Source: Candidatus Limnocylindrales bacterium (lineage in GTDB: Bacteria; Desulfobacterota; Binatia; UBA1149; CAITLU01). From it: a stretch of 64,000 nucleotides of DNA. Numbering within the stretch: the stretch's first letter is position 1; every line of letters starts with the position of its first letter. The notes beneath the pieces were generated by a model. The model saw nothing but the letters and a program-made list of their open reading frames with translations, was not told where the DNA came from and ran no database searches. This document shows positions 8,243 through 41,724 of this stretch, piece after piece. Position numbers and translations under genes: made by a program. The DNA lies in NCBI GenBank assembly GCA_035571835.1, contig DATNBU010000041.1:75955-139954 (forward strand), in the 5' to 3' direction.

Positions 8243-8876
8243 TGCTGTTCCTGATGGGCCTCGCACTCGCGCCCAGTCGGCAAAACTGTCACGGCCTGCT
8301 TCCGCCGGCAACTTATTTATCCGGTCCAGTCAGTTAGTTAACCAAAAACATTGACGAGAAGTCGTACGCCCTGCTAGAGAAGGGCTATGCGGCGCACCGG
8401 CGGTAACCACGCAGCGAACAAGTCGATCGCAGTCCCGCCTGCGCGGGGCACCTGCATTGTGCTCGTGGTGGTTCCCTCCGGCGTTCCGCAGACCAGCAGG
8501 ACGCCTGGCCATGGCCAAGCTACCGAAAAGGATGAGTTTTTCCTGAACTGGAGGGCTGCCGGAACCTAAGGAGGTGAGACAGAAAGTTTGTTTTGCACGA
8601 TTTCGCTGGGGTCGAGAACTGAAGAGAGAGGTGCGCGGCGGTTGACGCCGCCGCGCACCGAGTCTCCGACGGGTCACCCAGGTCGGAGGCCGCTCCGTAA
8701 GAAAGCGTAGCGGCCAGCCCAGTAGTCCGCAACCCAAGTTCATCCCACGCTCGAGGGTTCCCGCACGCCGGAGGCCGCTCCACTCCTCCTCGCCGCGATG
8801 CCGAGCATTCCGAAGCTTCCCGCGCACCCTGCGGGTGAGCCAAGGCCGCATCACAACCGGCCCTAGGAGGACACGA
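8243..8876. other. Divergent intergenic region with two hairpins
   Basis: No credible gene in 634 bases. Two inverted repeats are visible. The first has arms at 8630-8641 and 8648-8659, with a perfect 12-bp GC-rich stem and a six-base loop. The second has arms at 8688-8694 and 8709-8715, a 7-bp stem. They could be part of a structured leader upstream of the secreted protein at 8877, but no known riboswitch consensus was recognised. A strong ribosome binding site, AGGAGG at 8865-8870, serves the 8877 start. Confidence 0.5.
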
Positions 8877-11762
8877 ATGGATTCCCCCACTTTTCTCTCC
8901 CGTTTCAAGCGCACCGGGAAAAGGGTCAGCGGCTTTCTGGCTTTCAGTTATGGACTGACTGTGACGCTGACTCTGGGTATCGCATCAACTGCAGCCGCCG
9001 CGGTGCCGACTACCCCGACCGGCACGACGCCCGGCAGCACGACAAGCCCCGGTCCGACTACTTCGAGCACTTCGGTGCCGCTGGGCTGGAACTCGGTCAG
9101 CGGCGCGACGTACTACGACCTCGGGGTGAAAGATCTCGCTGCCGGCACGCTGGTGGTCGACACGACGACTACCGGCACTTCGTACTCGGCCAGCCTGGCA
9201 GCGGGCAAGACGTACAGATGGAACGTCGCAGCCTGTAATGCCTCGGGCTGTTCGGGCTACACGACGGTCCTGTACTTCCAGACGCCGTCGGCGGTCACTG
9301 TTCCGGCGATGCCGACGGGGACGACACCGGGCAGCACGACGAGCCCCGGCCCTACGACCTCGGGGACGACGGTCGGACTGGGCTGGAACGCGGTCTCCGG
9401 CGCGACGTACTACGACTTCGGAGTCAAGGATATCGCCGCCGGCACGCTGGTGGTCGACACGACGACTACCGGCACTTCGTACTCCGCTGCCCTGGCAGCG
9501 GGCAAGACGTACAGATGGAACGTCGCAGCCTGCAATGCCTCGGGCTGCTCAGGCTACACGACGCTGCTCTACTTCCAGACGCCGTCGGCGGCCACGGTGC
9601 CAGCGATGCCGACGGGGACGACGCCGGGCAGCACGACGAGCCCCGGCCCTACGACCTCGGGGACGACGGTCGGCCTGGGCTGGAACGCTGTGACCGGTGC
9701 GACGTACTACAGCTTCGGCGTCACCGACATCGCAGCGGGTGTACTGGTGGTCGACAAAACGACGTCCGGAACCTCGTACTCGGCCAGCCTGTCGGCGGGA
9801 AAGAACTACAGGTGGAACGTTGCCGCCTGCAACGCGTCGGGCTGCTCAGGCTACACGACGCTTCTCTACTTCCAGACCCCCTCGGCGGCCACGGTACCAG
9901 CGACGCCGACGGGCACGACGCCGGGAAGCACGACGAGTCCCGGGCCGACGACCTCGGGAGCGACGGTGGGCTTGGGCTGGAACGCCGTGACTGGTGCGAC
10001 GTACTACAGCTTCGGCGTCACCGACATCGCCGCGGGCGTGTTAGTGATCGACACGACGTCGACCGGTACCTCGTACTCGGCCAGTCTGTCGGCGGGAAAG
10101 AAGTACAGGTGGAACGTTGCCGCCTGCAATGCTTCGGGCTGCTCGGGCTACACGACGCTCCTCTACTTCCAGACGCCCTCGGCGGCTACGGCACCGGCGA
10201 TGCCGACGGGGACGACGCCAGGCAGTACGACCAGCCCCGGACCTACGACTTCGGGTACGACAGTGGGCCTGGGCTGGAACGCCGTGACCGGCGCGACGTA
10301 CTACAGCTTCGGCGTCACCGACATCGCCGCGGGCGTACTGGTGGTCGACACAACGACGACCGGAACCTCGTACTCGGCCAGCCTGTCGGCGGGAAAGAAG
10401 TACAGATGGAACGTCGCCGCCTGCAATGCCTCGGGCTGCTCGGGCTACACGACGCTCCTGTACTTCCAGACGCCGAGCGTGGTCGCCAGCCAGCCCGCGA
10501 AGCTGACTGCACCATCGCCCGGCAGCGCTTTCTCGGGGACCTCGGCAACCTTCAAGTGGTCGACGGGTACCGGTGTGACTGACTACTGGTTGTACGTGGG
10601 CAGCTCGGCAGGCGGGAATGACTTCTATAGCCAGGATCAGGGGACGAACCTCTCCGTGACCGTGAGCGGATTGCCGACGGATGGGCGCGTTCTCTACGTC
10701 ACGCTCTGGTCCTGGATCGGCGGTGCATGGCAGAACACGAACGCTACCTATACTGCCTATACCGCATCGTCACAGAGTGGGACTGAGCTGAGCCCGGGAA
10801 GCACGATCGCGAATCGTGCCATCGCTCTCGGCGAACAGCACCGCTACCGGTTCCCCATGGTCCTGGGGCGCACGTACTTTGTCGTGGCGATTCCTGGCGC
10901 ACACCCTGCGACGGACGTGGATCTGTACACGTCGAACAACAGCAACCTATCGACGACCGCGTACCAGTGCGCCCCGCGAGAAACCGGGACGACCCCTGAG
11001 GTTTGTAAGTTCGTCGCCTCCTTCACGGGGACCTACTGGTTGTTGGTGAACGGTACGACCGCGGGAAGATATATGCTCTCGGTGTTCGAGCAGTACAGCG
11101 GTCAGCCCGTGCCTACGGCAAGCGTGTTCGACAGTCCGGTTGCTCCGCCCGCGGCAACTGAAACCGATACGGATGCAGATGGATGGTACTCCGCGCAGGA
11201 CTTCGGAGAGTGCAACACGTCCACGATCCCGCCCAAGCTGCATCTCGGAGAAGACTGGAATCGTTCCGGGCCCGACCGCGGTGAGGTGGTGCGTGCCGTC
11301 GCAGACGGCGTGGTGACCTACGTGGCCCAGCCGCTTGCCTCCGATGGCACGCCCAGTGATTCGTGGAAGGGCGTCCTCGTAGTCAGGCACGCCGCGCCCA
11401 CGGCGACTCCGTTCCTGGTCCCTGCAGGTTCCAGGGCGACTTCGACCTGCACGTCCGCGAAGAACTGGTCGCAGAGTAAGGTCTCAACGGCGTGGTCCTT
11501 CTACGGCCATCTGGACAAGTGCTGGACCAATACGCCTCTGACAGGGTGCCCGTCGGCCGGAAGCCTGAGGTCCTGGTTGCGCGTTGGCGACGTCGTCCGT
11601 CGCGGACAGCCGATCGGGATCATCGGTGAGACTCCGCTCGGCAGCACCGGGTCGCACTCCCACATCGAAATGTGGACCTCACCGCTGACGCCGCCGGGTA
11701 CCGGTTACTCGAATGATCTCACGGGTAGGACGGACCCGACGGCGTTCTTCAACGCAAACTGA
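8877..11762 (+). CDS. Secreted FN3-repeat/PPC protein with M23 peptidase domain
   Basis: The 961-aa protein starts at ATG 8877, seven bases after AGGAGG. A long N-terminal signal peptide (KRVSGFLAFSYGLTVTLTL, ending AAAA) directs export. Residues about 43-537 are five fibronectin-III-like repeats of 99 residues each. Residues about 540-635 are a diverged sixth domain of the YWLYVGSSAGGND type, and about 635-738 a PPC-like beta domain (DVDLYTSNNS). The C-terminus is an M23/LytM endopeptidase fold: His789 and Asp793 (HLGEDW) and the HSHIEMW pair around 927-929 form a plausible zinc site, so peptidoglycan or protein cleavage outside the cell is possible. The gene stands alone, with a strong hairpin after it. 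The FN3 repeats probably act as a spacer or carbohydrate-binding stalk. Confidence 0.85.
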   Translation: MDSPTFLSRFKRTGKRVSGFLAFSYGLTVTLTLGIASTAAAAVPTTPTGTTPGSTTSPGPTTSSTSVPLGWNSVSGATYYDLGVKDLAAGTLVVDTTTTGTSYSASLAAGKTYRWNVAACNASGCSGYTTVLYFQTPSAVTVPAMPTGTTPGSTTSPGPTTSGTTVGLGWNAVSGATYYDFGVKDIAAGTLVVDTTTTGTSYSAALAAGKTYRWNVAACNASGCSGYTTLLYFQTPSAATVPAMPTGTTPGSTTSPGPTTSGTTVGLGWNAVTGATYYSFGVTDIAAGVLVVDKTTSGTSYSASLSAGKNYRWNVAACNASGCSGYTTLLYFQTPSAATVPATPTGTTPGSTTSPGPTTSGATVGLGWNAVTGATYYSFGVTDIAAGVLVIDTTSTGTSYSASLSAGKKYRWNVAACNASGCSGYTTLLYFQTPSAATAPAMPTGTTPGSTTSPGPTTSGTTVGLGWNAVTGATYYSFGVTDIAAGVLVVDTTTTGTSYSASLSAGKKYRWNVAACNASGCSGYTTLLYFQTPSVVASQPAKLTAPSPGSAFSGTSATFKWSTGTGVTDYWLYVGSSAGGNDFYSQDQGTNLSVTVSGLPTDGRVLYVTLWSWIGGAWQNTNATYTAYTASSQSGTELSPGSTIANRAIALGEQHRYRFPMVLGRTYFVVAIPGAHPATDVDLYTSNNSNLSTTAYQCAPRETGTTPEVCKFVASFTGTYWLLVNGTTAGRYMLSVFEQYSGQPVPTASVFDSPVAPPAATETDTDADGWYSAQDFGECNTSTIPPKLHLGEDWNRSGPDRGEVVRAVADGVVTYVAQPLASDGTPSDSWKGVLVVRHAAPTATPFLVPAGSRATSTCTSAKNWSQSKVSTAWSFYGHLDKCWTNTPLTGCPSAGSLRSWLRVGDVVRRGQPIGIIGETPLGSTGSHSHIEMWTSPLTPPGTGYSNDLTGRTDPTAFFNAN
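9003..10487 (+). repeat. Five tandem 297-bp in-frame FN3 repeats
   Basis: Units start at 9003, 9300, 9597, 9894 and 10191, exactly 297 bp (99 codons) apart, and are close to identical at protein and DNA level. Each encodes the same block from PTGTTPGSTTSPGPTT to LYFQTPSA. The precise period and high DNA identity indicate recent amplification or ongoing homogenisation. Confidence 0.95.
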
Positions 11763-11903: not shown

Positions 11904-12281
11904 TCACGGCAACTCCGTCGCGGCGGCTGGGTGCCCGCCCGGACACCACTCGACCACTCCATCCTTGATCCAGAAATGGCATCCGCACGCATTTGTCTGA
12001 TGCACGCTCGGCGATACGGTTGGCCGCGTCCAGAAGTCGGTCAGGACCGCCCAGCGAGGCCGTCGCTGAGGATTCAGCGACAGCGAGATCGCCGAGCCGC
12101 AACCGCCAGGACACAATAGGCACGCCCATTTCCGTACCTCGCCGTCGATTACGATCACCATCTCGTCTGACTTCAGCGCGCCGGGACCGGGATGTTCTCG
12201 GTGCATGACGGCGACAAGGTCGAAGTCGAGCCAGCCGATTCTCCGCAGCAGTTTGGCAATGCGTTTCCTGAGCAGCGTCAC
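11904..12281 (-). CDS. DUF6527-like Cys-rich protein of ubiquitin-like operon
   Basis: About 125 aa. The conserved pattern is VIDGEVRKWACLLCPGGCG near residue 40, followed by LSLN, RPRW and a C-terminal CGCHFWIKDGVVEWC. This matches what I recall of the DUF6527 family, whose members sit beside bacterial E1/E2/JAB genes. The Cys pairs suggest a zinc-binding treble-clef-like fold, possibly a ligase-like or adaptor role, but that is inference. The GTG at 12281 is chosen because it overlaps the stop of the E1 gene (GTGA), giving translational coupling; an ATG at 12323 would overlap the E1 gene by 46 bases. It is the last gene of the cassette. Confidence 0.7.
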   Translation of the reverse strand: MTLLRKRIAKLLRRIGWLDFDLVAVMHREHPGPGALKSDEMVIVIDGEVRKWACLLCPGGCGSAISLSLNPQRRPRWAVLTDFWTRPTVSPSVHQTNACGCHFWIKDGVVEWCPGGHPAAATELP

Positions 12282-13675
12282 CCCATTATCCCAAGGAATG
12301 GGTCGGTGTCTGCACGGCCCCATGCGGATGTGCCCACGCAGACCGGGCAGCCGTCGTTGCGCTTCGGGGCAAGACTCCGGTCATCACCGGCATGGAAGCG
12401 CCGTATGTGGTTCGGGATCATCCCATCCGGACCACGGTAGCCGGTGATCGCGTCGACCATCTCGTTCACCGCGACGCAGGCCATCTCGGTGGTGAACGTC
12501 ACCACCGCTGGAGCCGGGTCGCCTGCACCGATGACGTAAGCCTCTGCCTTGCGCTTGCTGAATTCTTCCGGGTCCGCACGTTCGAGCGCCTCTTCGGCCG
12601 CGCGCCGTGGGTTGATGACGCCGCTGCAGAGAAGGCAAGGCCGTCCCGGCGAGAGCGTTGTTACCCTGCCGTTGATATCGTGGCCGTCTCTGGCAGCGGC
12701 CATCCTCAGGCCGACGTCGATGACAGGGATACCGTAGTAGTAGGCGAGGCGGTTCAGCATCGCGCGTCCGGAATGGTCATCTGTGCAGCCGAAAACGAAG
12801 TCGCACGACTTGATCGCGTCCCGCATCTCGCGGGAATTCGCCCATGCTTTCCTCGTTACGACCTGGGTGCCGAGGCCGGCGGCTGCGATTTCGCGTTCGG
12901 CGAGCGAGACCTTCGCCAGTAGCTCATCGACATCGCTCCGACGGGACCCATGCACTCGGTTTAGATTGCTGGTCTCGACCACGTCATCATCGAGTAGCAG
13001 TAGGTACCCGACGCCAAGGCGCGCCAGGAGCATCGCCACGGCACTGCCCGTGCCGCCAAGCCCAACGATCGCGATCCGCAGGCCGCGTAAGGTCGGGTTG
13101 AACGACAGGCCGAACAGCCTTGCCTGGCGGTCCAGGTGTTCGGTGTTGGCGGCGACGGCCGCATCCATCGTCCACCTAGTGAACCGGCCACCGACGCGCT
13201 GTACGTTCACCGCGTCGACGGGGGGCGCGTCGCCGCGCCAGAGTCGCGCTCGGATTGAGCCATCGCCGCCGAGCACGATGCTGACGAGACCGAGGACACC
13301 CTTCACCGCTGCGGTGCGCGCGAGCTTGGTTTCGTTCGCGGTGTCCTGCTCCGAGAAGAAGGCCGTGCTGCCGGGATGGGTGTGGACAATGGCCGGTACC
13401 AAGCCAGCAGTGAGGGCGTCGCAGAGCAGCCTCATGTAACCGGCGGTGCTCCATGTGACGTGCTCTGCAGACGTGCTTACGAATGCCGTCGACTCGATGT
13501 CCCGGAACTGGTGCGATACCAGCCGTGTTCGCGCTCGGCCTGTCCAAGGATCGGAGGCGATGTCCGACACTCCGAGTAGCATGTAGGCCGCTGTCTCAGC
13601 GGAACCGCTGGCGAGCATCTGTCGGAGGCGCGAGTTGTGTGGCTCGAGCACCGTGAGATCGAGAACGGGGGCCAT
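12278..13675 (-). CDS. JAB peptidase fused to E1-like (ThiF) ubiquitin activator
   Basis: The 465-aa protein joins two enzymes. Residues about 1-160 form a JAB/MPN metallopeptidase with HTHPG at about 98 and Asp at about 111 (FSEQD), the zinc ligands of deubiquitinase-like enzymes. Residues about 190-440 are a ThiF/E1 adenylation domain with GLGGTG (about 205), the DDDVVETSNLNR segment (about 229-240), and Cys pairs CLLC (about 347) and CPVC (about 441) that likely bind zinc. The family adenylates and passes on a ubiquitin-like tail, while JAB trims or removes it. The start at 13675 overlaps the upstream stop (TGATG). Having both halves in one chain means modification and removal are made in equal amounts. 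Confidence 0.88.
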   Translation of the reverse strand: MAPVLDLTVLEPHNSRLRQMLASGSAETAAYMLLGVSDIASDPWTGRARTRLVSHQFRDIESTAFVSTSAEHVTWSTAGYMRLLCDALTAGLVPAIVHTHPGSTAFFSEQDTANETKLARTAAVKGVLGLVSIVLGGDGSIRARLWRGDAPPVDAVNVQRVGGRFTRWTMDAAVAANTEHLDRQARLFGLSFNPTLRGLRIAIVGLGGTGSAVAMLLARLGVGYLLLLDDDVVETSNLNRVHGSRRSDVDELLAKVSLAEREIAAAGLGTQVVTRKAWANSREMRDAIKSCDFVFGCTDDHSGRAMLNRLAYYYGIPVIDVGLRMAAARDGHDINGRVTTLSPGRPCLLCSGVINPRRAAEEALERADPEEFSKRKAEAYVIGAGDPAPAVVTFTTEMACVAVNEMVDAITGYRGPDGMIPNHIRRFHAGDDRSLAPKRNDGCPVCVGTSAWGRADTDPFLGIMG

Positions 13676-14598
13676 CAGCGTGCCCTCTCGATGGCGTAGC
13701 GGGCGCGCGCGATCATGGTGTGGAGCCCGTCGATACCGGGACGCCACTCTCCGCAGTGGCGCGACCACCTCTGCCACGACTGCCCGCTGAATTGGTGCGC
13801 ATGGTCAGCGCGTTCCGGGTAGCGCCCCGTCTCCGCGAGACGAACCCATGGGTCCATGAAGAACATGTCGGGGCACGCGTCGGGATAGCCGCCTGGGAGA
13901 ATGATTAGCAGGTCGACGTGGTCGCGGTCGTACTTGTGCGGCGGCAGCTGGAAGCCCTCGATGACGACGCCTACCTGGCCGCCGTGGCCGACCAGCCGGT
14001 GGGCGATTCCGTGCTGCTCGAGGTAGTTGCGGTCCGCCTCCGGAAGGGCCGTCAGCCCCTCCGTCGTCTCCTTGATGACAGTGATGAAACGCTCGATGCC
14101 GGGCTTCGATAGATCGACCGGGTCGGTGTCGCCGATTTCGACATCCTGCCCACCGCGTACCTCAAGGTAGATCGCGTACTTCGGACCGACGGCGGCGAGA
14201 CGGCGCAGGATGGCGCCGGTGATCAGCGCCTTGCCCCACTCCTGCTGCTTGTTGTCGATGGTGAACTTGAAGAGTCGATCGGTGCGAAAGTAGATGAACC
14301 TTTCCGTTCCGTGGCCGCGGAGATCGAACGGCTCGTCGAGCCGCAGGTCTTCAAACTCGCCGTTCGGTAGCACGGCGCAGACGCTGAATTCATCGACGGG
14401 ACGGGCCCCCGCGGCGTCGAGCACCTGACGGCCCAGGGGCACCGGGTCCGTCACTTCGACAACGCGGTAGTTCAGAGTTTCGTCCGCGACCTTGATCAGG
14501 TAGGCGCGGGCGGGATGCAGTGGACGGTCTTCGCGGATAGCCGTCTCGAGGTCATCGACGTCGGGACGGCTGGTGGGAGCGGGGGAAGATACACTCAT
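13675..14598 (-). CDS. Double ubiquitin-like protein fused to E2-like domain
   Basis: The 307-aa protein has two tandem Ubl-like domains of the Multi_ubiq type (about 30-103 and 107-174). Each closes with a similar block, TERFIYF or IERFITVI. They are followed by a prokaryotic E2 domain (about 185-305) with the family-E-like motif WQRWSRHCGEWRPGID. Cys242 (YPDACPD) and Cys282 (RHCGEW) are candidate thiol sites; which is catalytic cannot be said. No terminal diglycine is visible on either Ubl because both are internal, so the modifier may be used as a fusion or cut out by the JAB enzyme. It is the first gene of the three-gene conjugation cassette, 102 bases after the helicase gene. Confidence 0.82.
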   Translation of the reverse strand: MSVSSPAPTSRPDVDDLETAIREDRPLHPARAYLIKVADETLNYRVVEVTDPVPLGRQVLDAAGARPVDEFSVCAVLPNGEFEDLRLDEPFDLRGHGTERFIYFRTDRLFKFTIDNKQQEWGKALITGAILRRLAAVGPKYAIYLEVRGGQDVEIGDTDPVDLSKPGIERFITVIKETTEGLTALPEADRNYLEQHGIAHRLVGHGGQVGVVIEGFQLPPHKYDRDHVDLLIILPGGYPDACPDMFFMDPWVRLAETGRYPERADHAHQFSGQSWQRWSRHCGEWRPGIDGLHTMIARARYAIERAR

Positions 14599-14700
14599 AT
14601 GATTGAACCTCTGTTTGAATTTCTGTCTAGCGATGGTCCGGTATGGGCCGTCTACGACAGGTCAATCAGAGCCGGACAACCCGACCGGTAACTCGACTCG

Positions 14701-17700
14701 CTAGATTGTGAATCTTTTTTCGATGGACCCGTCGGGCACGGGGCCGCAGATGAAGAACGCTGGGCACCGGGGACAAGTCCGAGGAGACTCGTCCCGCGGA
14801 AAGCGCCCAGCACGGATCTCGTCCAAGGCCTTCTCTGCTGTGGACTTCCGATCGGCGAGGGTTTTCGGCTTCATGCCGACCATTCTGACAGTGGCGTCGC
14901 CCAGATGAACGAATTCCACCACGCAACCGGGAATGGTCTCGTGCGCCGCCAGCGCGAAGACGGCGGCGGACACAGTTTCCAGTTCCTTCGAGGAAGCGTG
15001 TCCCGTCCGGATCATCCGAAAACGAGTGTGGCCGTCCTTTCCGGTCAGCACGTCGTCGGGTCGGACAACAATCTCGCCGCCGGACACACCCAGCCGCAAC
15101 TCGGTCGACAGCGACTTCGCGTACCCGTCGCGGGATTCGATGAAAAAACCGACGAGCTGTCTCGCGATGACCATGAAGTCGTCGGAGTAGCCGTGATCCC
15201 CTAATCGTTGCTGGTCCCATGCTTCGGCGAGGCGAGACTCGACTTCCGAAGGCGACGGCGCCGCCGACGGCTCACCGGTGAGCCAGTCGACGATGGATCT
15301 CACCGCATCATGCATCTGCATAAACGGCGTTTCGTTTCGTCTCCCGCCGAGTTCGAGCACGTGGGTGTAGAAGAAACGTCGAGGGCACCGCTCGAAGAGT
15401 CCCAGCTTGCGCTCCGTGAGCAGGACACCTTCGGGAAACTCCACCGGAATGGGCACGTCGTCGGCGGCGCGGGGCAACGTGAGCTTCGGTGTCACCGGTG
15501 TGCTGTCGATCCTGCCGCCGAGCCGATCGATGAAAGGCGACCGCCCGCGTGCGTGTCCGTTGGATTTTTTCGTTGGCGAATAGAGGATCAGGCGGTCTCT
15601 GGCGCGCGAGAGCGCGACGAAGAACAGGCATTCCTGCTCTTCGACATGTCCGGCCTTAAGTACCTCGATCCCCGTGCCGGACACGCCTTCCACCATCCCG
15701 TCCGGCGGTGCGCATCCCTTCACATGATTGGGCGATCTGGGGAGCGTGTCCGAGTTCATGCCCGGGATGTGGACCGCAAGGAACTCGAGCCCCTTGCTGC
15801 CGTGGATCGTCATGAGTCTGACCGCATCGATACTCTGCGCCGCGGCAGGTAGCTGGCGCAGGTCCCGCTCGTCCGACAGAAGCACGAGCCGGCGTATGCG
15901 GTCCAGCAGTCGCGTGATCGGCAGACCGGCTGCGAGCGGCTGCGCCCTTACAAAGTTCATGAACTGCCAGATTGCGACGCCGCGCGCCCGGAGGGCGACT
16001 TCCCCCGATTGTGCTATTCCCGCCCCGATGCGGGTTCGGTCGAGCAAAAGCTTCGCGAGCACCATCCAAGGGTTGGATGTTGCGTCGAACCCGTTGAGGG
16101 CCTGCTGCAGCGTGCCGAGCACTGCGACGGCGGTGGACGAAAGCCCCGCGATGCCGTCGATCGCATCGAGCCATTGAAGCGGTCGCTCCTCGCTGTCCTT
16201 TAGGTGGGCGATCACGGTCGAGACGTCGGAAAGTTGCAGGGGAAATTCCGGCATAGTCCCGACGCGAACCAATCCCATCGCTCGGCGATCGGCGAGCATG
16301 GACAGCAGCGAAAGGAGTTCCTGAACTTCGTCTCGCTCGAAGAGGCTACCCAGGTATAGGACCGGGATGCCCATACTTTCGAGTCCGGCGGCCATCCGTC
16401 CGAGCCGCTCATTGCCGGTGCAGAGCAGAGCCTGATCGCGGTACGACATTCCTGCCGCGCGATGCTCTTGAATGGCCTCGGCGATCGCCGCGATCTCAGC
16501 AGATGCCATCTCAACCGCGCGGTACTCCGGCTTGACGCCGGAGGCGCCTCGGTCGGCCTTCAGCCTGACGTCGTCACCAGCGGCCGCCTTCATGTCGCGG
16601 CCGGCGAACTCGACGAAGGCATCGACGATCTCTTCGCTGGAGCGGTAGTTGATACTGAGGCGGTCACGCTTGCCGCCAGGAAAGTCTTCTCTGCCGAACT
16701 GCGCCACATTGACCGATGACGCGCCACGAAAACGGTAGATCGACTGCTTAGCGTCGCCAACGACCCACAGATTTTCCCCGGACCCGGCGATGGCCTTGAG
16801 CAGGCGAACGCTCGCACGGTTCACGTCCTGGAATTCGTCGATGAGGACGTGCTGATGGCGGGCGCGCAAAAGGTTCAGGACCTCTTCATCACGCTCGATG
16901 AGCCGCACCGGCATCGACACCAGATCCCCGAAGTCCAAGCATCTCCGCTCCTCCTTGAGCGATTCGTAGTATGCATAGACCTTGGCCACCTCTTGGCATT
17001 TTTCAGCCGCCTCCTGCTGTTCGGGTGTTCTTGCGGCGCGGAACATGTCGTCCGATAACTCGGCATATCGCCGGGCGCAGACGACTTCGTCCTTGGCGCG
17101 CGAGATAGCGGCGAGAATGTCACTGATCTCGAAAGAGGGATCCCACAGATTTTGGTAATGGGTGAGCGCAAGCCGCGGAAAGCCGTCCGCCAGCAGATCG
17201 ATCGCCTCCGTGCGGTCCATCAGTCGTGGGTTTGGTGGCAGGTTAAGCCGCTCGTGAAAGCGACGGATGATATCGAGGCCGAACGAATGGAAGGTGCCGA
17301 TCCACATCGCGGCCGCTGCCTGCGGCCGCTTAGCCGCGATCCTGTCCGAGAGCTCGCCAGCCGCTTTGTTTGAGAAGGTCAGTACGAGGATGTTTTCGGC
17401 CGGCACCTTCTTCTCTTCGAGAAGCCACTCTACTCGGCCGACAAGAGTCTGCGTTTTTCCAGTGCCCGGTCCGGCTTCCAACAGGTACGGCGAGCCCCAA
17501 TGCTCGGCAGCGCACTTCTGTTCACTGTTGAGATCCTGCTCCTCGCGACCATGCAGGTCGAGCGTCACCGGCGGCAACAGGAGCGCGTCGAGCAACTGAA
17601 GAGCTACCACATCGAACGGCGCGCCGAGGCGGGCGGCGATGTCCGACGCCGTCATTCCTTCATCCACGTGCAGCCGCCGCGCGACGGAACGTGGCAGAAG

Positions 17701-18117
17701 GAATTCACGGGCGAAGAGATCCATCTGGACTTCGCGCCGCTCGCGGCGGCTGTAGTCGATGACGCGATCGACGCCTATGGGTGCGGCCTCCGCTGGTCGA
17801 GTAGGATCAGGCACTAACGAGACGTTCGCTTCGCTTGCACCGCCAAATTCTACGTGTCCAAGCTCGTGGGCGACGAGGAACGCATTCGTGAAGTCGTCAC
17901 CCGCGTCTTCGTGAAGAATCGCCAAAGCGCCGGGATCGTACAATGCGCGGGCTCCTCGCAGTCGGACGTCGCCCTTAGGCAGCTTCTCGACAGCGACATT
18001 CCGGCGGAATCCCTCAGTGCACGCGAACTCGTAGAGACGCCAAGGATCCAGGCCGCGGGCGATCGCTTGCGAGTGCAGACTTTCGGCTGTTTGACGCGTG
18101 ACCTCGACGGTGTCCAT
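14701..18117 (-). CDS. ImmA/IrrE peptidase fused to UvrD/AddA-like helicase
   Basis: This 1138-aa protein carries an N-terminal ImmA/IrrE zinc-peptidase domain with HELGH at about 84-88 and the downstream AREFLLP signature (about 136). A superfamily 1 helicase follows: Walker A GPGTGKT at about 216, DEFQDVN motif II, GDAKQSIYRFRG motif III, TIHGSKGLEF motif V and VALSRARDRL motif VI. The C-terminus looks like a RecB/AddB nuclease with a four-Cys arrangement (FERCPRRFFY, then CPRCPAFFICGP), as in iron-sulfur nucleases. The usual DYKTG active-site stretch reads MIRTG here, so nuclease activity is doubtful. The start at 18117 lies one base after the XRE-like gene's stop. A peptidase-helicase fusion suggests a DNA-damage or invasion sensor. 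Confidence 0.85.
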   Translation of the reverse strand: MDTVEVTRQTAESLHSQAIARGLDPWRLYEFACTEGFRRNVAVEKLPKGDVRLRGARALYDPGALAILHEDAGDDFTNAFLVAHELGHVEFGGASEANVSLVPDPTRPAEAAPIGVDRVIDYSRRERREVQMDLFAREFLLPRSVARRLHVDEGMTASDIAARLGAPFDVVALQLLDALLLPPVTLDLHGREEQDLNSEQKCAAEHWGSPYLLEAGPGTGKTQTLVGRVEWLLEEKKVPAENILVLTFSNKAAGELSDRIAAKRPQAAAAMWIGTFHSFGLDIIRRFHERLNLPPNPRLMDRTEAIDLLADGFPRLALTHYQNLWDPSFEISDILAAISRAKDEVVCARRYAELSDDMFRAARTPEQQEAAEKCQEVAKVYAYYESLKEERRCLDFGDLVSMPVRLIERDEEVLNLLRARHQHVLIDEFQDVNRASVRLLKAIAGSGENLWVVGDAKQSIYRFRGASSVNVAQFGREDFPGGKRDRLSINYRSSEEIVDAFVEFAGRDMKAAAGDDVRLKADRGASGVKPEYRAVEMASAEIAAIAEAIQEHRAAGMSYRDQALLCTGNERLGRMAAGLESMGIPVLYLGSLFERDEVQELLSLLSMLADRRAMGLVRVGTMPEFPLQLSDVSTVIAHLKDSEERPLQWLDAIDGIAGLSSTAVAVLGTLQQALNGFDATSNPWMVLAKLLLDRTRIGAGIAQSGEVALRARGVAIWQFMNFVRAQPLAAGLPITRLLDRIRRLVLLSDERDLRQLPAAAQSIDAVRLMTIHGSKGLEFLAVHIPGMNSDTLPRSPNHVKGCAPPDGMVEGVSGTGIEVLKAGHVEEQECLFFVALSRARDRLILYSPTKKSNGHARGRSPFIDRLGGRIDSTPVTPKLTLPRAADDVPIPVEFPEGVLLTERKLGLFERCPRRFFYTHVLELGGRRNETPFMQMHDAVRSIVDWLTGEPSAAPSPSEVESRLAEAWDQQRLGDHGYSDDFMVIARQLVGFFIESRDGYAKSLSTELRLGVSGGEIVVRPDDVLTGKDGHTRFRMIRTGHASSKELETVSAAVFALAAHETIPGCVVEFVHLGDATVRMVGMKPKTLADRKSTAEKALDEIRAGRFPRDESPRTCPRCPAFFICGPVPDGSIEKRFTI

Positions 18118-18118
18118 G

Positions 18119-18697
18119 TCATTCTGCCGCCGTGTAGATGTCGAGCTTCTGCTCCGTCGTCGTACCGGACGCATCAAGCAGCGTATCGAACGCCACCTTG
18201 TCTGCGAGCGTTGGTTTTTCGTTGGCCTTATAGTTCGCGGGCGTGGCGACAACCGGAGGCAAGTCCAGATGCGTCATTAGGTCAGCGACTGTTGTGTTTG
18301 CCGCTCGAGCGACCCGCTCCACGAACGCCGCCGGCACCGATGAAGCGATAACGAGGCGATCCCTGAACGCCAATAGGACCGATCTTGGTACGCGTAACTT
18401 CTTCGCTAAGGCGGCGAATCCCGCTCCTCGGAAGGCGTCGAAGGGATTGATTACGGCGGCTGGCCTCCGCACGCCTGTGAACTGTTTCAGCGCCCGCTGG
18501 AAGGTCGCTTCGTCTTCCACGGCCTCGGCAATGCCGCGACCTTCAATGCGAAGTTCATGCGACAGATCGACGAGATCCTCCGTAAACTGCGGATATAGCG
18601 TCAGGTAGCGTTCGAGCGTCAACTTGTCGTGGGTGGGCTCGACCGAAAACGCGAATAGTACGTCCTCGAGCGGTATCTGCGGCTTCGCCGGGCTCAT
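18119..18697 (-). CDS. XRE-like partner of the ImmA/IrrE fusion
   Basis: About 192 aa. The central part (FAALAKKLRVPRSVLLAFRD, then AFVERVARAANTTVADL) has the spacing of XRE/Cro-type antitoxin or repressor folds that pair with ImmA/IrrE peptidases. It is therefore a likely substrate or partner of the adjacent fused peptidase, as ImmR is for ImmA. The N-terminal 100 residues are acidic and helical with no recognised domain. The ATG at 18697 overlaps the sigma-like gene's stop (ATGA) and is chosen over an upstream ATG at 18775. Function is inferred from context, since the HTH match is weak. Confidence 0.6.
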   Translation of the reverse strand: MSPAKPQIPLEDVLFAFSVEPTHDKLTLERYLTLYPQFTEDLVDLSHELRIEGRGIAEAVEDEATFQRALKQFTGVRRPAAVINPFDAFRGAGFAALAKKLRVPRSVLLAFRDRLVIASSVPAAFVERVARAANTTVADLMTHLDLPPVVATPANYKANEKPTLADKVAFDTLLDASGTTTEQKLDIYTAAE

Positions 18698-19503
18698 GAC
18701 TCCTCCTCCTCGAGCACCTTCCGGACTACTTCGAATGCTTTGTCTCGGCGGTTTCGGACGGTCTTCTCGGCGCACTTGAGAATACCTACGATCGTCTGGA
18801 CTCCCGGCTCCTTGGAATCGATCGGGAATCCCCGCCTCAGCAACTCGACAACCCGGCGCTGATCCTCTGGCAAGGCATCAATCGCAACGTTAATCCGGAA
18901 CCGGTAACCCGGATCGTCAATTCTCGAATCCATCGGGGGATTTTGGGCGGCGGCCGCGTCGGCAGCCGCTTCCTCGATCTCGGCCTCCAACTCACCAGCC
19001 TCGTCTTCAGTCATTGGCTTGGACCGGTTTTCCTCTTTCCATGCCTTTTTTCGTGCTGTCAGCCGGAGCTTCGCCACTGCATCGTCGAAATTGATCTCGA
19101 AATAGTCGAGTCGGTCCTCGTACCCGTCGCGGTCGAGCAACAGTAGCTCTTGGAATCGGTCCATGACCGCATCGGCAATCACGGTTTTCGTGTGGGATTC
19201 GAGCAACCTGCCATCAGGCAAGCGCCCAACCACCAACCTCGGCAGTAGCGCCAATATGCGCCGTCGGAGCGTCCGGAATAGCGCCGTGAAGTGGACGTCC
19301 GAGTCGTCTGCCCTTGACGCCCGGACGAGGTGAAGCAGGCATTCTGACGGGAGATACTCGGCGTGCGCAGTATCGACTATTTTGCACCGGTCGGCGACGT
19401 CTGACTCCGGCAACACGACGAGGTCGACCAGCGCCGCTTCGACGTTGGGCCGCCGGGAGTAGGGAGTCCCGTCCAGTCTCGCCCGGCGAAGCGGCGCTAC
19501 CAT
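18694..19503 (-). CDS. Sigma-70 region 4-like DNA-binding protein
   Basis: The last 70 of 269 residues read like sigma region 4: IDALPEDQRRVVELLRRGF, then VQTIVGILKCAEKTVRNRRDKAF, a helix-turn-helix with the typical R-R recognition end. Upstream lies a region-2-like helical block (residues about 70-130, LLPRLVVGRLPDGRLL and DRFQELLLLDRDGYEDRLDYFEINFDDAV with gaps). An acidic linker with an AADAAAAQ stretch joins the two. It probably directs RNA polymerase to dedicated promoters, maybe those of this gene set. The start overlaps the upstream gene's stop by seven bases. The domain ends differ enough from ECF factors that it may be a diverged family. Confidence 0.7.
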   Translation of the reverse strand: MVAPLRRARLDGTPYSRRPNVEAALVDLVVLPESDVADRCKIVDTAHAEYLPSECLLHLVRASRADDSDVHFTALFRTLRRRILALLPRLVVGRLPDGRLLESHTKTVIADAVMDRFQELLLLDRDGYEDRLDYFEINFDDAVAKLRLTARKKAWKEENRSKPMTEDEAGELEAEIEEAAADAAAAQNPPMDSRIDDPGYRFRINVAIDALPEDQRRVVELLRRGFPIDSKEPGVQTIVGILKCAEKTVRNRRDKAFEVVRKVLEEEES

Positions 19504-20696
19504 CGGTAGGCTCTAATGGCCGACTCGAACGCTGAACCCGGAGCAGTCAACGTGCTCGCCAGCGGTCCCGCGAGATCCAAGTGACCACCGCTTGCGAGTG
19601 ACTCGCCGCACCCGGTCCGGCTGGCGCGCGCTTCAGCTGCACGCCTCTCGACGAGTGCTTCGTACTCGCCCACGTTCTCGTTCAGCAGATTGTCGAGTGG
19701 AGATTCTACCGCAAGGGGCCAATCGATTCTCCGGTACCGGCTGCCGTCAGCCATGATGCGTTTGCGATGGACGGCCGAAATAAAAGGCACGGAATCAACA
19801 ATCGTCAGCCTCTCGAATTCTCGCGCGAGAGTTCTGAGGTAGCGCCTACCGGCGACGGCGACGACATGCAGCTCGCGACCGAGTCGATCGCGAAGCCTAG
19901 CCAGATCAGCGATCGCGGTGAGTCCGCGCTCCCTGTTCTTGAGCCCGGTCTGAAACTCCTTGCAGACGTATGTCGCGCTTGGGGTATTACGAAGGACTTC
20001 CAGCCACTGCTCCCAATCTCCACCGGACTGCGCGTTGAGATGGAGGATCGGATGGATTCCCGCATCCGCGAGTTCCTCTGCGCTCCGAATGATGCGCCAG
20101 AAATTGCGCTTGGTATCGGTGCGTGGCGCCTCGTCGAAGAACGAAAAATTAGGAGTCGTCATGGCGAGCAGGTTCAGAGCAGCGAGCGCCTTCAGCTTTT
20201 CCGCGCTTCGAGATTGCCAGAATCCTTCGACCCATTTGTCCTGCTGCACCGAGATAAGGAGCAGCTTTGCCTTCGCATCGACCTTGAAACGCCTTCGCAA
20301 TGAGGCTGCGGAACGCACGCGTGGGCGACAGTCCCCCGTGATAACTCGAAAGGTGTCGAGTGCGACCGTCTGGCGAGGCAGGACGTCGCGCCGCGCACCA
20401 CTGTGCCGGATCATAGGGACATACAGCGGAAGTTGTGTCGTAGGACTCGGGAGATCACGCCGCTGTGTCGGAGCCAGGCCGCCGATCTCGGCATAGTTGC
20501 GAAAAAATTCTTCCGGCTTTCCCGGGCAGGTGAAGGAACAGTTGCCATCCGCCGCTCCGCAATCCCCGCAACTACCGAAGCACCCGAACAATTCCGACTG
20601 ATCGCCGGCGAGCCCCGGGCATCCCTGCTGATAGGCGCAGGAGTGACAGGGGCCCTTCGGCGAAGGCTCATACAGCCGGTGGTTACTTTCTGGCAT
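19497..20696 (-). CDS. Cys-rich DUF4417-like protein
   Basis: About 399 aa. The N-terminus holds an unusual cysteine cluster between residues about 16 and 57 (PCHSCAYQQGCPG, CFGSCGDCG, CSFTCPGKP), suggesting iron-sulfur or zinc binding. The middle, TTPNFSFFDEAPRTDTKR followed by an AGIHPILHLN block, is similar in layout to DUF4417 proteins (PDFS-type strand, then basic helix, then hydrophobic strand). Function is unknown. The ATG at 20696 is preferred to one at 20756, giving a short 14-base overlap with the upstream gene. Its place between the STAS-like and sigma-like genes suggests a sensor or effector. The DUF match is by eye and may be wrong. Confidence 0.5.
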   Translation of the reverse strand: MPESNHRLYEPSPKGPCHSCAYQQGCPGLAGDQSELFGCFGSCGDCGAADGNCSFTCPGKPEEFFRNYAEIGGLAPTQRRDLPSPTTQLPLYVPMIRHSGARRDVLPRQTVALDTFRVITGDCRPRVRSAASLRRRFKVDAKAKLLLISVQQDKWVEGFWQSRSAEKLKALAALNLLAMTTPNFSFFDEAPRTDTKRNFWRIIRSAEELADAGIHPILHLNAQSGGDWEQWLEVLRNTPSATYVCKEFQTGLKNRERGLTAIADLARLRDRLGRELHVVAVAGRRYLRTLAREFERLTIVDSVPFISAVHRKRIMADGSRYRRIDWPLAVESPLDNLLNENVGEYEALVERRAAEARASRTGCGESLASGGHLDLAGPLASTLTAPGSAFESAIRAYRW

Positions 20697-21069
20697 TCCC
20701 AGCCTCGCTTCCCATCTGCAGCGATAGTCCACCGAATGGATCGACCCGCGTGACACGGCACGGGACGATACCGTTGAATGTCGGGGCTGAAGCTATCGTT
20801 TCGCGCGCAAACTCTGCCGCGTCCTTGGGGAGCGTGACGAGAACTTTGTTGCCGCGCACGACGCGAAATGCGTCGCCTACTTGCAGAAGCAGGCACCTAT
20901 CGCCGACAGCAATTGTCCCGTCGTCGCGGTCGCGCCGACAGATGAGCTCGCGTTCGACGCGCGTCCTCCGCGTAAGCCGGAAGAGGTCGATGTCGACGAG
21001 TTCCTGATAGGCATCATGACTCAGATTCTTGAACGCTCGCGCACGTTTTCGTTTGAACGATTCACCCAC
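20683..21069 (-). CDS. Small hypothetical protein, about 128 aa
   Basis: A basic N-terminus (GESFKRKRARAFKNLSHDAYQ) is followed by an all-beta-looking C-terminus (VGDRCLLLQVGDAFRVVRG, VTRVDPFGGLSLQMG). The GTG at 21069 is proposed because it overlaps the STAS-like gene's stop by eight bases, as every other pair in this run overlaps; a start at 21132 would invade that gene. No family recognised. Its coupling on both sides argues that it is a working member of the operon. Confidence 0.5.
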   Translation of the reverse strand: MGESFKRKRARAFKNLSHDAYQELVDIDLFRLTRRTRVERELICRRDRDDGTIAVGDRCLLLQVGDAFRVVRGNKVLVTLPKDAAEFARETIASAPTFNGIVPCRVTRVDPFGGLSLQMGSEAGNARK

Positions 21070-41648: not shown

Positions 41649-41724
41649 TGGCTCCCCGGGCCGGACTCGAACCAGCGACATGGTGGTTAACAGCCACCCG
41701 CTCTACCGACTGAGCTACCGGGGA
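41649..41724 (-). tRNA. tRNA-Asn (GTT)
   Basis: On the minus strand the acceptor stem TCCCCGG pairs with CCGGGGA, followed by the discriminator G and an encoded CCA (41649-41651). The D-loop has AGCTCAGTCGGTAGAGC. The anticodon loop CTGTTAA gives anticodon GTT (Asn), and the T-loop is GGTTCGAGTCC. Total length is 76 nt. Its 3' end points toward the accessory region, the usual orientation of a tRNA used as an integration site. Confidence 0.95.

What the first reader, a model, noticed from the sequence alone, without database searches (positions are those of the whole stretch)
11904..14598. Complete bacterial ubiquitin-like conjugation cassette in three coupled genes
Double-Ubl fused to E2, JAB peptidase fused to E1, and a Cys-rich DUF6527-like gene are joined by TGATG and GTGA overlaps. 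The two fusions put modifier, conjugation and removal into two polypeptides. This resembles predicted polyUbl/E2/E1-JAB operons (Iyer, Burroughs and Aravind), and related Bil/Bub systems act in antiphage defence. Neither Ubl has an exposed C-terminal glycine, so how the modifier is released is an open question.
Basis: partly seen in the sequence, partly recalled or inferred. Interest (0 to 1): 0.82.

Follow-up and report, generated by a model that had tools for sequence, protein, structure and literature searches.

The report
Bacterial ubiquitin-like cassette with shared controller
The three genes are a bacterial ubiquitin-like tagging cassette of a known type, but the three genes next to it look like a separate switch, with its own promoter sequence, that bacteria reuse in front of several different ubiquitin-like systems.

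Summary
In detail: P1 is two ubiquitin-like domains plus an E2-fold domain, P2 is JAB plus E1, P3 is DUF6527. It is operon class 6e of Iyer 2006, now called Bub, so a new member of a known kind. The release question has a likely answer: Ubl2 ends at Gly181 in TTEG at the Ubl/E2 junction; four cyanobacterial Ubls from separate genes end exactly at TTTEG-stop. E1 and E2 lack a conserved catalytic cysteine.

The surprise lies upstream. A triad, R1 (sigma-like), R2 and R3 (M78 protease, UvrD helicase, nuclease-dead domain), adjoins a Ubl-conjugation operon in 24 of 24 opened loci selected by R2 or R3 (22 of 22 without two already known to adjoin one), of four operon types including Bil. The element TTACCGG-N16-YGATT precedes the operon in 23 of 27 discovery loci, 3 of 4 held-out loci and 0 of 3 distant ones; a second copy lies inside the R1 coding sequence. 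I propose a dedicated sigma-factor switch for ubiquitin-like systems. Nothing is tested at the bench, and key papers could not be read.

The parts
13675..14598 (-). P1: Ubl1 (about aa 33-106), Ubl2 (aa 110-181, ending TTEG) and Prok-E2_E domain (aa 185-305), one polypeptide of 307 aa
   Evidence: Pfam; PDB multi-Ubl proteins and Citrobacter BubB; alignment
14056..14058 (-). Gly181 codon: predicted cut site and mature C-terminus of Ubl2
   Evidence: four unfused cyanobacterial Ubls end exactly at TTTEG; a PDB construct named Citrobacter BubA 155-229 ends at the number of the equivalent glycine (229) in L037
12278..13675 (-). P2: JAB (JAMM residues E27, H98, H100, S108, D111) fused to a ThiF/E1 domain, 465 aa
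   Evidence: (Citrobacter BubCD, 2.5e-30)
11904..12281 (-). P3: DUF6527 protein, GTG start, 125 aa, CPxGCG ... CxCHF metal-binding-like signature
14664..14691 (-). Predicted R1-dependent promoter of the Ubl operon, TTACCGG-N16-TGATT
18880..18907 (-). Second copy of the element, inside the R1 coding sequence, about 180 bp before R2
18694..19503 (-). R1: sigma-like protein, 269 aa, sigma-70 region 4 near its C-terminus
18119..18697 (-). R2: 192-aa protein with a weak Xre-like HTH signal; proposed R1 inhibitor and R3 substrate
14701..18117 (-). R3: M78 (ImmA/IrrE-like) metallopeptidase, UvrD helicase and PD-(D/E)XK-like domain that has lost the acidic residue of DxK, 1138 aa

Best explanation
The cassette is a Bub (6e) ubiquitin-like conjugation operon. 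P1 is a precursor: the JAB half of P2 is inferred to cut after Gly181 and so release Ubl1-Ubl2 from the E2-like domain. The E1 half of P2 is inferred to adenylate that glycine, and transfer is inferred to go without E1/E2 cysteine thioesters; Ser279/His281 of the QRWSRH motif in the E2 domain are candidate residues. P3 is a metal-binding-like helper, perhaps for target recognition (Iyer's suggestion). Expression is inferred to be controlled by R1-R2-R3: R1 is a dedicated sigma-like factor that reads TTACCGG-N16-YGATT both before the operon and inside its own gene (before R2-R3); R2 holds R1 inactive; R3 couples DNA engagement by its helicase to its M78 protease, which cuts R2 and frees R1. Shown by sequence: domains, conserved residues, linkage and promoter-like elements. 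Inferred: every catalytic and regulatory step.
For: Family and closest structures; operon class. Gly181: four separate cyanobacterial Ubls end at TTTEG-stop; of 17 fused Ubl-E2 proteins aligned, 14 have TTEG at the junction and the other three have TTAG (L034), NNG (L037) or QTEG (L007). JAMM residues are invariant in 11 aligned P2 sequences. Linkage: 24 of 24 opened loci selected by R2 or R3 with readable flanks (L038-L045, L085-L087, L065-L068, L070-L073, L075, L081-L084) adjoin a Ubl-conjugation operon; for L044 and L045 the P1 search had already shown a Ubl gene nearby, so 22 of 22 without them. R3: HExGH and Walker A are kept and the acidic residue of DxK is absent in all 22 aligned. Element: strict match in the gap in 23 of 27 discovery loci and 3 of 4 held-out, 0 of 13 Bub loci without the triad; in 26 loci both strands hold 46 matches, 42 of them at the two expected places, against a Markov mean of 2.2; window shuffles give mean 0.00 against 2 found; own genome 3 matches in 5.46 Mb, 2 of them here. 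Internal site: 19 of 20 against 0.73 expected from codon use. Region 4 in 14 of 15 R1 proteins; the R1 profile hits sigma factor FliA at 0.0014. ssDNA-activated CapP cleaving CapH is the reported precedent (PMC13373217, passages).
Against: No sigma region 2 was detected by Pfam in R1, and annotators also call R1 a response regulator or LuxR-type regulator. R2's HTH is weak (2 of 17 members, best 0.0034) and its model matches nothing significantly. The element was found post hoc; L042, L068, L073 and L075, L081 and L085-L087 fail the strict pattern in the gap, and L068 and L084 lack the strict internal copy. With one mismatch allowed the element is not unusual in the window. Many Bub loci have other neighbours instead, so the triad is not essential to Bub. 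The best PDB hit of P1's Ubl part is named Ubl-BilA, so the Ubl part alone does not separate Bub from Bil names. Cleavage, conjugation and defence are untested.
Confidence: 0.62

Rival explanations
1. R1-R3 is part of the immune effector: R3 attacks or unwinds phage DNA and the Ubl system tags its targets; R1 and R2 are accessory.
For: R3 is a large RecB/AddA-like machine and lies in the same direction as the operon in 23 of the 24 R2- or R3-selected loci (all but L042). R3-like helicases occur in defence systems such as Gabija (one search shows GajB models matching the helicase part).
Against: The acidic residue of the nuclease motif is lost in all 22 aligned R3, while M78 residues are kept; the element before the operon and before R2 fits control better; in L042 the triad is divergent from the operon.
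Confidence: 0.2
2. The cassette works as a canonical E1-E2 thioester ubiquitin cascade.
For: P1 has cysteines in its E2 domain, including one right after WSRH; E1, E2, Ubl and JAB are all present.
Against: No E2 cysteine is conserved in the alignment; P2's cysteines are CxxC pairs (lost in L037), unconserved ones, or the C of CTDD. Iyer 2006 called the E2 inactive/RWD-like.
Confidence: 0.08
3. The TTACCGG-N16-YGATT element is an operator bound by R2 or another repressor, not a sigma-type promoter.
For: R2 may have an Xre-like HTH.
Against: The element is not a palindrome; spacings of 14-20 were allowed, yet the gap match of each of the 23 loci has exactly 17 bases between TTACCG and YGATT (one further match in L004, elsewhere, has 15), as in a -35/-10 pair; locus-specific variants are shared by both copies (L044 TTACCGA, L067 TTTCCGG, L071/L072 TTTCCGGG).
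Confidence: 0.2
4. The M78 gene next to Bub is a toxin-antitoxin pair that keeps the plasmid-borne cassette (proposal of PMC4963859).
For: That paper (passages) reports COG2856/DUF955 toxin-like genes next to 70% of PF14452 genes.
Against: Here the M78 domain is the N-terminus of a helicase and comes with a sigma-like gene and a promoter-like element before the operon.
Confidence: 0.07

Closest known systems
Bub (bacterial ubiquitination-like), operon class 6e of Iyer 2006 (PMC1779556)
   Same: polyUbl, E2/RWD-like domain (fused to polyUbl in some species), JAB-E1 fusion, metal-binding protein; Citrobacter BubA, BubB and BubCD are in PDB
   Different: Different controller (R1-R2-R3) from the CapH+CapP, CapW and CapK+CapS that PMC13373217 reports next to Bub
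Bil (BilABCD)
   Same: Two-domain Ubl, JAB, E1, E2; a Bil operon (L038) carries the triad closest to the window's (R3 74% identical; sisters at 100/100); the best PDB hit of P1's Ubl part is named Ubl-BilA
   Different: The window's P1 and P3 match no PADLOC model and P2 no Bil model among the 25 of 32 hits shown; Bil has separate genes
CapH+CapP
   Same: M78/ImmA-IrrE protease domain adjoining an immune operon
   Different: M78 is fused to a helicase with a dead nuclease-like domain; a sigma-like protein is added; R2 has only a weak HTH signal
6A-MBL (E2-E1-JAB plus MBL)
   Same: One held-out triad (L081) sits before an MBL-like gene (by eye) and cap2_3 (NF058523, 652 bits)
   Different: Different conjugation operon; the window's P2 scores 39 bits against a cut-off of 320

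Membership tests
Bub / class 6e | Tandem Ubl domains (polyUbl) | tested here: met
   Two Multi_ubiq stretches in P1
Bub / class 6e | E2/RWD-like domain without conserved catalytic Cys, fused to polyUbl in some species | tested here: met
   Prok-E2_E; no conserved Cys
Bub / class 6e | JAB fused to E1 in one polypeptide | tested here: met
Bub / class 6e | Metal-binding gene with paired Cys and Cys/His | tested here: met
   DUF6527; pattern near but not identical to Iyer's C-x3-C-x(35-38)-H-x2-C
Bub / class 6e | Conjugation of the Ubl to targets | not testable with these tools
   needs biochemistry
Bil | BilA-D family matches | tested here: not met
   P1 and P3 no model at E <= 1; P2 no Bil model among the 25 of 32 hits shown
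6A-MBL | cap2_3 (NF058523) above cut-off | tested here: not met
   39.3 bits against 320
CapH+CapP controller | M78 metallopeptidase with intact active site | tested here: met
CapH+CapP controller | HTH repressor as substrate | tested here: inconclusive
CapH+CapP controller | Stand-alone protease | tested here: not met
   R3 is a fusion to a UvrD helicase
CapH+CapP controller | Activation by ssDNA | not testable with these tools
   needs biochemistry
Sigma-70 family factor (R1) | Region 4 | tested here: met
   14 of 15 members (E <= 0.05, best 1.6e-6); window member itself only 0.019; FliA hit 0.0014 with the profile
Sigma-70 family factor (R1) | Region 2 (-10 recognition) | tested here: inconclusive
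   no Pfam match; AlphaFold model poor, pLDDT 59

The most novel reading that the evidence does not exclude
Bacterial ubiquitin-like conjugation systems of at least four kinds (Bub, a JAB-less polyUbl type, Bil and 6A-MBL) share an exchangeable control cassette: a dedicated sigma factor (R1), its inhibitor (R2) and a DNA-engaging helicase whose own M78 protease domain releases the sigma factor. One of the two promoters is written into the coding sequence of the sigma factor gene.
Probability: 0.55. Interest if true: 0.85.

Novelty: new variant of a known kind. Interest (0 to 1): 0.66.

Why it matters
The Ubl cassette itself extends a known family. The controller would link DNA engagement by a helicase directly to sigma-factor release and to the switching on of ubiquitin-like tagging, and would give several systems of unclear trigger one testable trigger. 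The conserved element predicts members of the regulon from sequence alone, and the gene-internal copy is a clear case of one DNA stretch serving as protein code and probable promoter. The TTEG boundary makes the JAB-processing question directly testable.

Tried and rejected
Rejected or unproductive: scans of viral contigs gave no relatives of P1 or R3 and phage records none of P1. In a sample of 395 genomes of the window's phylum R2 was found only in the window's own. Unfused sigma/hypothetical/ImmA genes at L034 and L035 are not detectably related to R1 or R2. AlphaFold on 3 (R1) or 4 (R2) sequences gave mean pLDDT 59 and 72, and Foldseek nothing at E <= 0.001. DdrO, the IrrE substrate, appears among the R2 hits only at E 7-10 and I do not use it. 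Allowing one mismatch, the element is no longer unusual in the window (3 found, mean 1.19 in shuffles). L085-L087 lack the strict element.

What I could not read: Chambers 2024, Gong 2025 and Ye 2026 were looked up by id and are not held (the id was recalled and proved not to be Gong's); Hor 2024 was seen only as a citation (one search's paper) and Millman 2022 only as a name in a passage. I therefore cannot say the triad is unreported; the full-text searches that showed no report of it were made, and PMC13373217 holds no 'helicase'.
Full report
1. The observation. Three minus-strand genes lie at the stated place with the stated overlaps. Pfam assigns P1 to Multi_ubiq (two stretches) and Prok-E2_E, P2 to Prok-JAB and ThiF, P3 to DUF6527, all above curated cut-offs. 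P3's start is the GTG at 12281, giving 125 aa.

2. What the cassette is. Iyer 2006 (PMC1779556, passages read) describes class 6e: polyUbl with two or three Ubl domains, an inactive E2/RWD-like domain that is fused to polyUbl in some species, JAB fused to E1, and a metal-binding protein. That is this cassette. PMC13373217 (passages read) calls such operons Bub, counts 544, finds 219 of them next to CapW or CapH+CapP and 59 next to CapK+CapS, and says they have not been shown to protect against phage. The PDB sequence search finds Citrobacter BubCD for P2 (2.5e-30); for P1 it finds multi-Ubl proteins (best 5.6e-35, a chain named Ubl-BilA) and Citrobacter BubB (5.9e-10). P1 has relatives in 175 of 72,556 plasmid records and none in the phage records.

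3. How the modifier is released. In four cyanobacterial loci with separate Ubl and E2 genes (L020, L025, L027, L028) the Ubl ends exactly at TTTEG-stop. Two other split loci (L035, L030) carry 3 and 8 residues after TTEG. Of 17 fused Ubl-E2 proteins, 14 have TTEG at the Ubl/E2 junction, L034 has TTAG, L037 NNG and L007 QTEG; all 17 have the glycine. In the window it is residue 181. In Citrobacter L037 the NNG glycine is residue 229, and a PDB construct is named "Citrobacter BubA 155-229"; that the two Citrobacter proteins share numbering is assumed. I infer that JAB cuts P1 after Gly181. The JAMM residues E27, H98, H100, S108 and D111 are invariant in 11 aligned P2 proteins.

4. Chemistry. No cysteine is conserved in the E2 domain. 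WSRH is present in 23 of the 26 rows of the alignment; two of the other rows (L011, L013) hold no E2 domain there, and one, L008, is a distant Prok-E2_E hit above cut-off that lacks it. In P2 the only cysteine conserved through Citrobacter L037 is that of CTDD. I therefore expect chemistry without E1/E2 thioesters. Ser279 as nucleophile is a guess. [quoted passage not shown]

5. The triad. Directly upstream lie R1, R2 and R3; R1 and R2 overlap by four bases and one base separates R2 from R3. R3 carries an M78 peptidase, a UvrD helicase and a PD-(D/E)XK-like domain. In 22 aligned R3 sequences the HExGH and Walker A motifs and the Fe-S-type cysteines are kept, while the acidic residue of the nuclease DxK is absent in all 22 (commonest form RxR; one sequence, L073, keeps the lysine) (the printout was cut in its middle, and the motif was placed by eye). 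R1 has sigma-70 region 4 in 14 of 15 members (the window's own at 0.019), and its profile hits sigma factor FliA at 0.0014. R2 has a weak Xre-like signal in 2 of 17 members.

6. Linkage. Loci found by P1 are biased, so I count only loci selected by R2 or R3. Of the 97 plasmid records with an R3 relative (E <= 1e-40), 11 were opened this way (L038-L045, L085-L087): 11 of 11 adjoin a Ubl-conjugation operon. For L044 and L045 the P1 search had already shown a Ubl gene nearby, so they are not blind. L044's record ends after the Ubl gene; L085-L087 are judged from annotation and gene order alone. Five more of the 97 had been opened through P1. In 397 genomes of the order of L003, the R2 profile hit 15: the seed; 9 with complete flanks (L065-L068, L070-L073, L075), all 9 with R2, R3 and a Ubl operon (R1 not found in L075); L069 cut off after R3; one contig-edge fragment not fetched (G665); and three weak hits without R3 (G537 at 1.9e-6, G459 and G501 at about 5e-4). 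In 390 genomes of the order of L005 it hit 5: the seed and 4 others, 4 of 4 with triad and conjugation operon. Total 24 of 24, or 22 of 22 without L044 and L045: Bub 6, JAB-less polyUbl with a PRK06153-like E1 10, Bil 7, 6A-MBL 1. L038's four genes match PADLOC BilA, B, C and D (4.5e-44 to 4e-146), L072 BilA and L071 BilC and D likewise; L075 rests on my own L038-based profiles. L081's fusion matches the 6A-MBL cap2_3 model at 652 bits against a cut-off of 320. The R2 profile was built from triads already next to Ubl operons, so triads elsewhere could have been missed.

7. Exchange. An R3 tree of 26 rows needs 6 changes of operon type (least possible 3). The window (Bub) and L038 (Bil) are sisters at 100/100. 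I read this as movement of the module between operon types. L073 sits on a very long branch.

8. The element. In the gap between R3 and the operon (for L042, the divergent gap between R1 and the operon), TT[AT]CCG-N17-[CT]GAT[TC] occurs in 23 of 27 discovery loci (the list includes near-copies such as L065/L066 and L003/L006). The misses are L042, L068 (CTACCG-N17-AGATT, read), L073 and L075. In 26 of these loci (all but the window) both strands hold 46 matches against a Markov mean of 2.2 (largest 5); 42 lie at the two expected places and 4 elsewhere. Held-out loci: 3 of 4 strict, and L081 has TTACCG-N17-AGATT before its MBL-like gene (read). L085-L087: 0 of 3. Bub loci without the triad: 0 of 13 in 400 nt (L021 and L037 are near-copies). 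In the window, 2 exact matches to TTACCGG-N16-YGATT against a shuffle mean of 0.00; with one mismatch allowed the count is not unusual. In the whole genome, 3 matches, 2 of them here; the pattern read backwards gives 0.

9. The gene-internal copy. The second window match (18907-18880) lies in R1 and encodes Y-R-x5-A-I. In 19 of 20 loci tested the codons spell the element, against 0.73 expected from each locus's own codon use with the peptide held fixed; in a subset of 12 more distinct loci 12 of 12 against 0.43. The miss is L068; L071-L073 and L075 were not in that test. Of the held-out loci L081, L082 and L083 have it and L084 does not. Locus-specific variants are shared by both copies. In the Bil loci L071 and L072 the second copy lies near or before the start of R1 instead. 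It would drive R2-R3.

10. Model and standing. See Best explanation. The domain content, linkage and conserved elements are sequence facts; every catalytic and regulatory step is inference. The precedent for an M78 protease activated by ssDNA is CapP (PMC13373217) and PprI/IrrE (PMC10904395; title and start of abstract seen in the listing).

11. Context. The cassette lies in what looks like a defence island: serine recombinase, GmrSD, a methylase/Res pair, and a tRNA-Asn at 41649-41724.

12. Changes made on re-checking the calls: the linkage count now sets apart L044 and L045; the junction motif, the WSRH count, the R2/R3 spacing, the nuclease motif and the Bil E-value range were corrected. 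None of these changes the odds given.

Noticed in passing
window 21659-41724: Probable mobile defence island: GHKL ATPase-like, terminase-like, ParB_N-methylase, serine recombinase, GmrSD, SNF2 helicase, N6/N4 methylase, Res subunit and PLD genes up to a tRNA-Asn.
   Followed up: partly
window 19497-20756: 419-aa protein with a cysteine-rich N-terminus and no Pfam match, whose end overlaps the start of R1. Its relatives were not searched for.
   Followed up: no
window 8835-11762: 975-aa protein with, by eye, about five similar repeats of roughly 95 aa and a C-terminal M23-like stretch.
   Followed up: no
L039-L041, L043-L045, L065-L068: A polyUbl operon with a third, diverged Ubl-like part, a PRK06153-like E1 without JAB and a second DUF6527 type; in the four Ubl genes printed (L039, L041, L043, L044) the protein ends NV(T/S)(R/K)TxxS, not in glycine. 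How it is activated is unclear.
   Followed up: partly
L006: A decayed copy of the same six-gene cluster in Brucella cytisi: R1, R3, P1 and P2 are split over several frames while R2 and P3 are intact.
   Followed up: no
L086 4949-9787: A distant Bil-like triad has a different two-box sequence shared, by eye, between the R1 upstream region and the operon gap (TTCCGATTCC ... TTGCGA), as if sigma and promoter had changed together.
   Followed up: no
L025: A Bub operon in Nostoc lies next to a nucleotidyltransferase and a SAVED-domain gene (CBASS-like).
   Followed up: no
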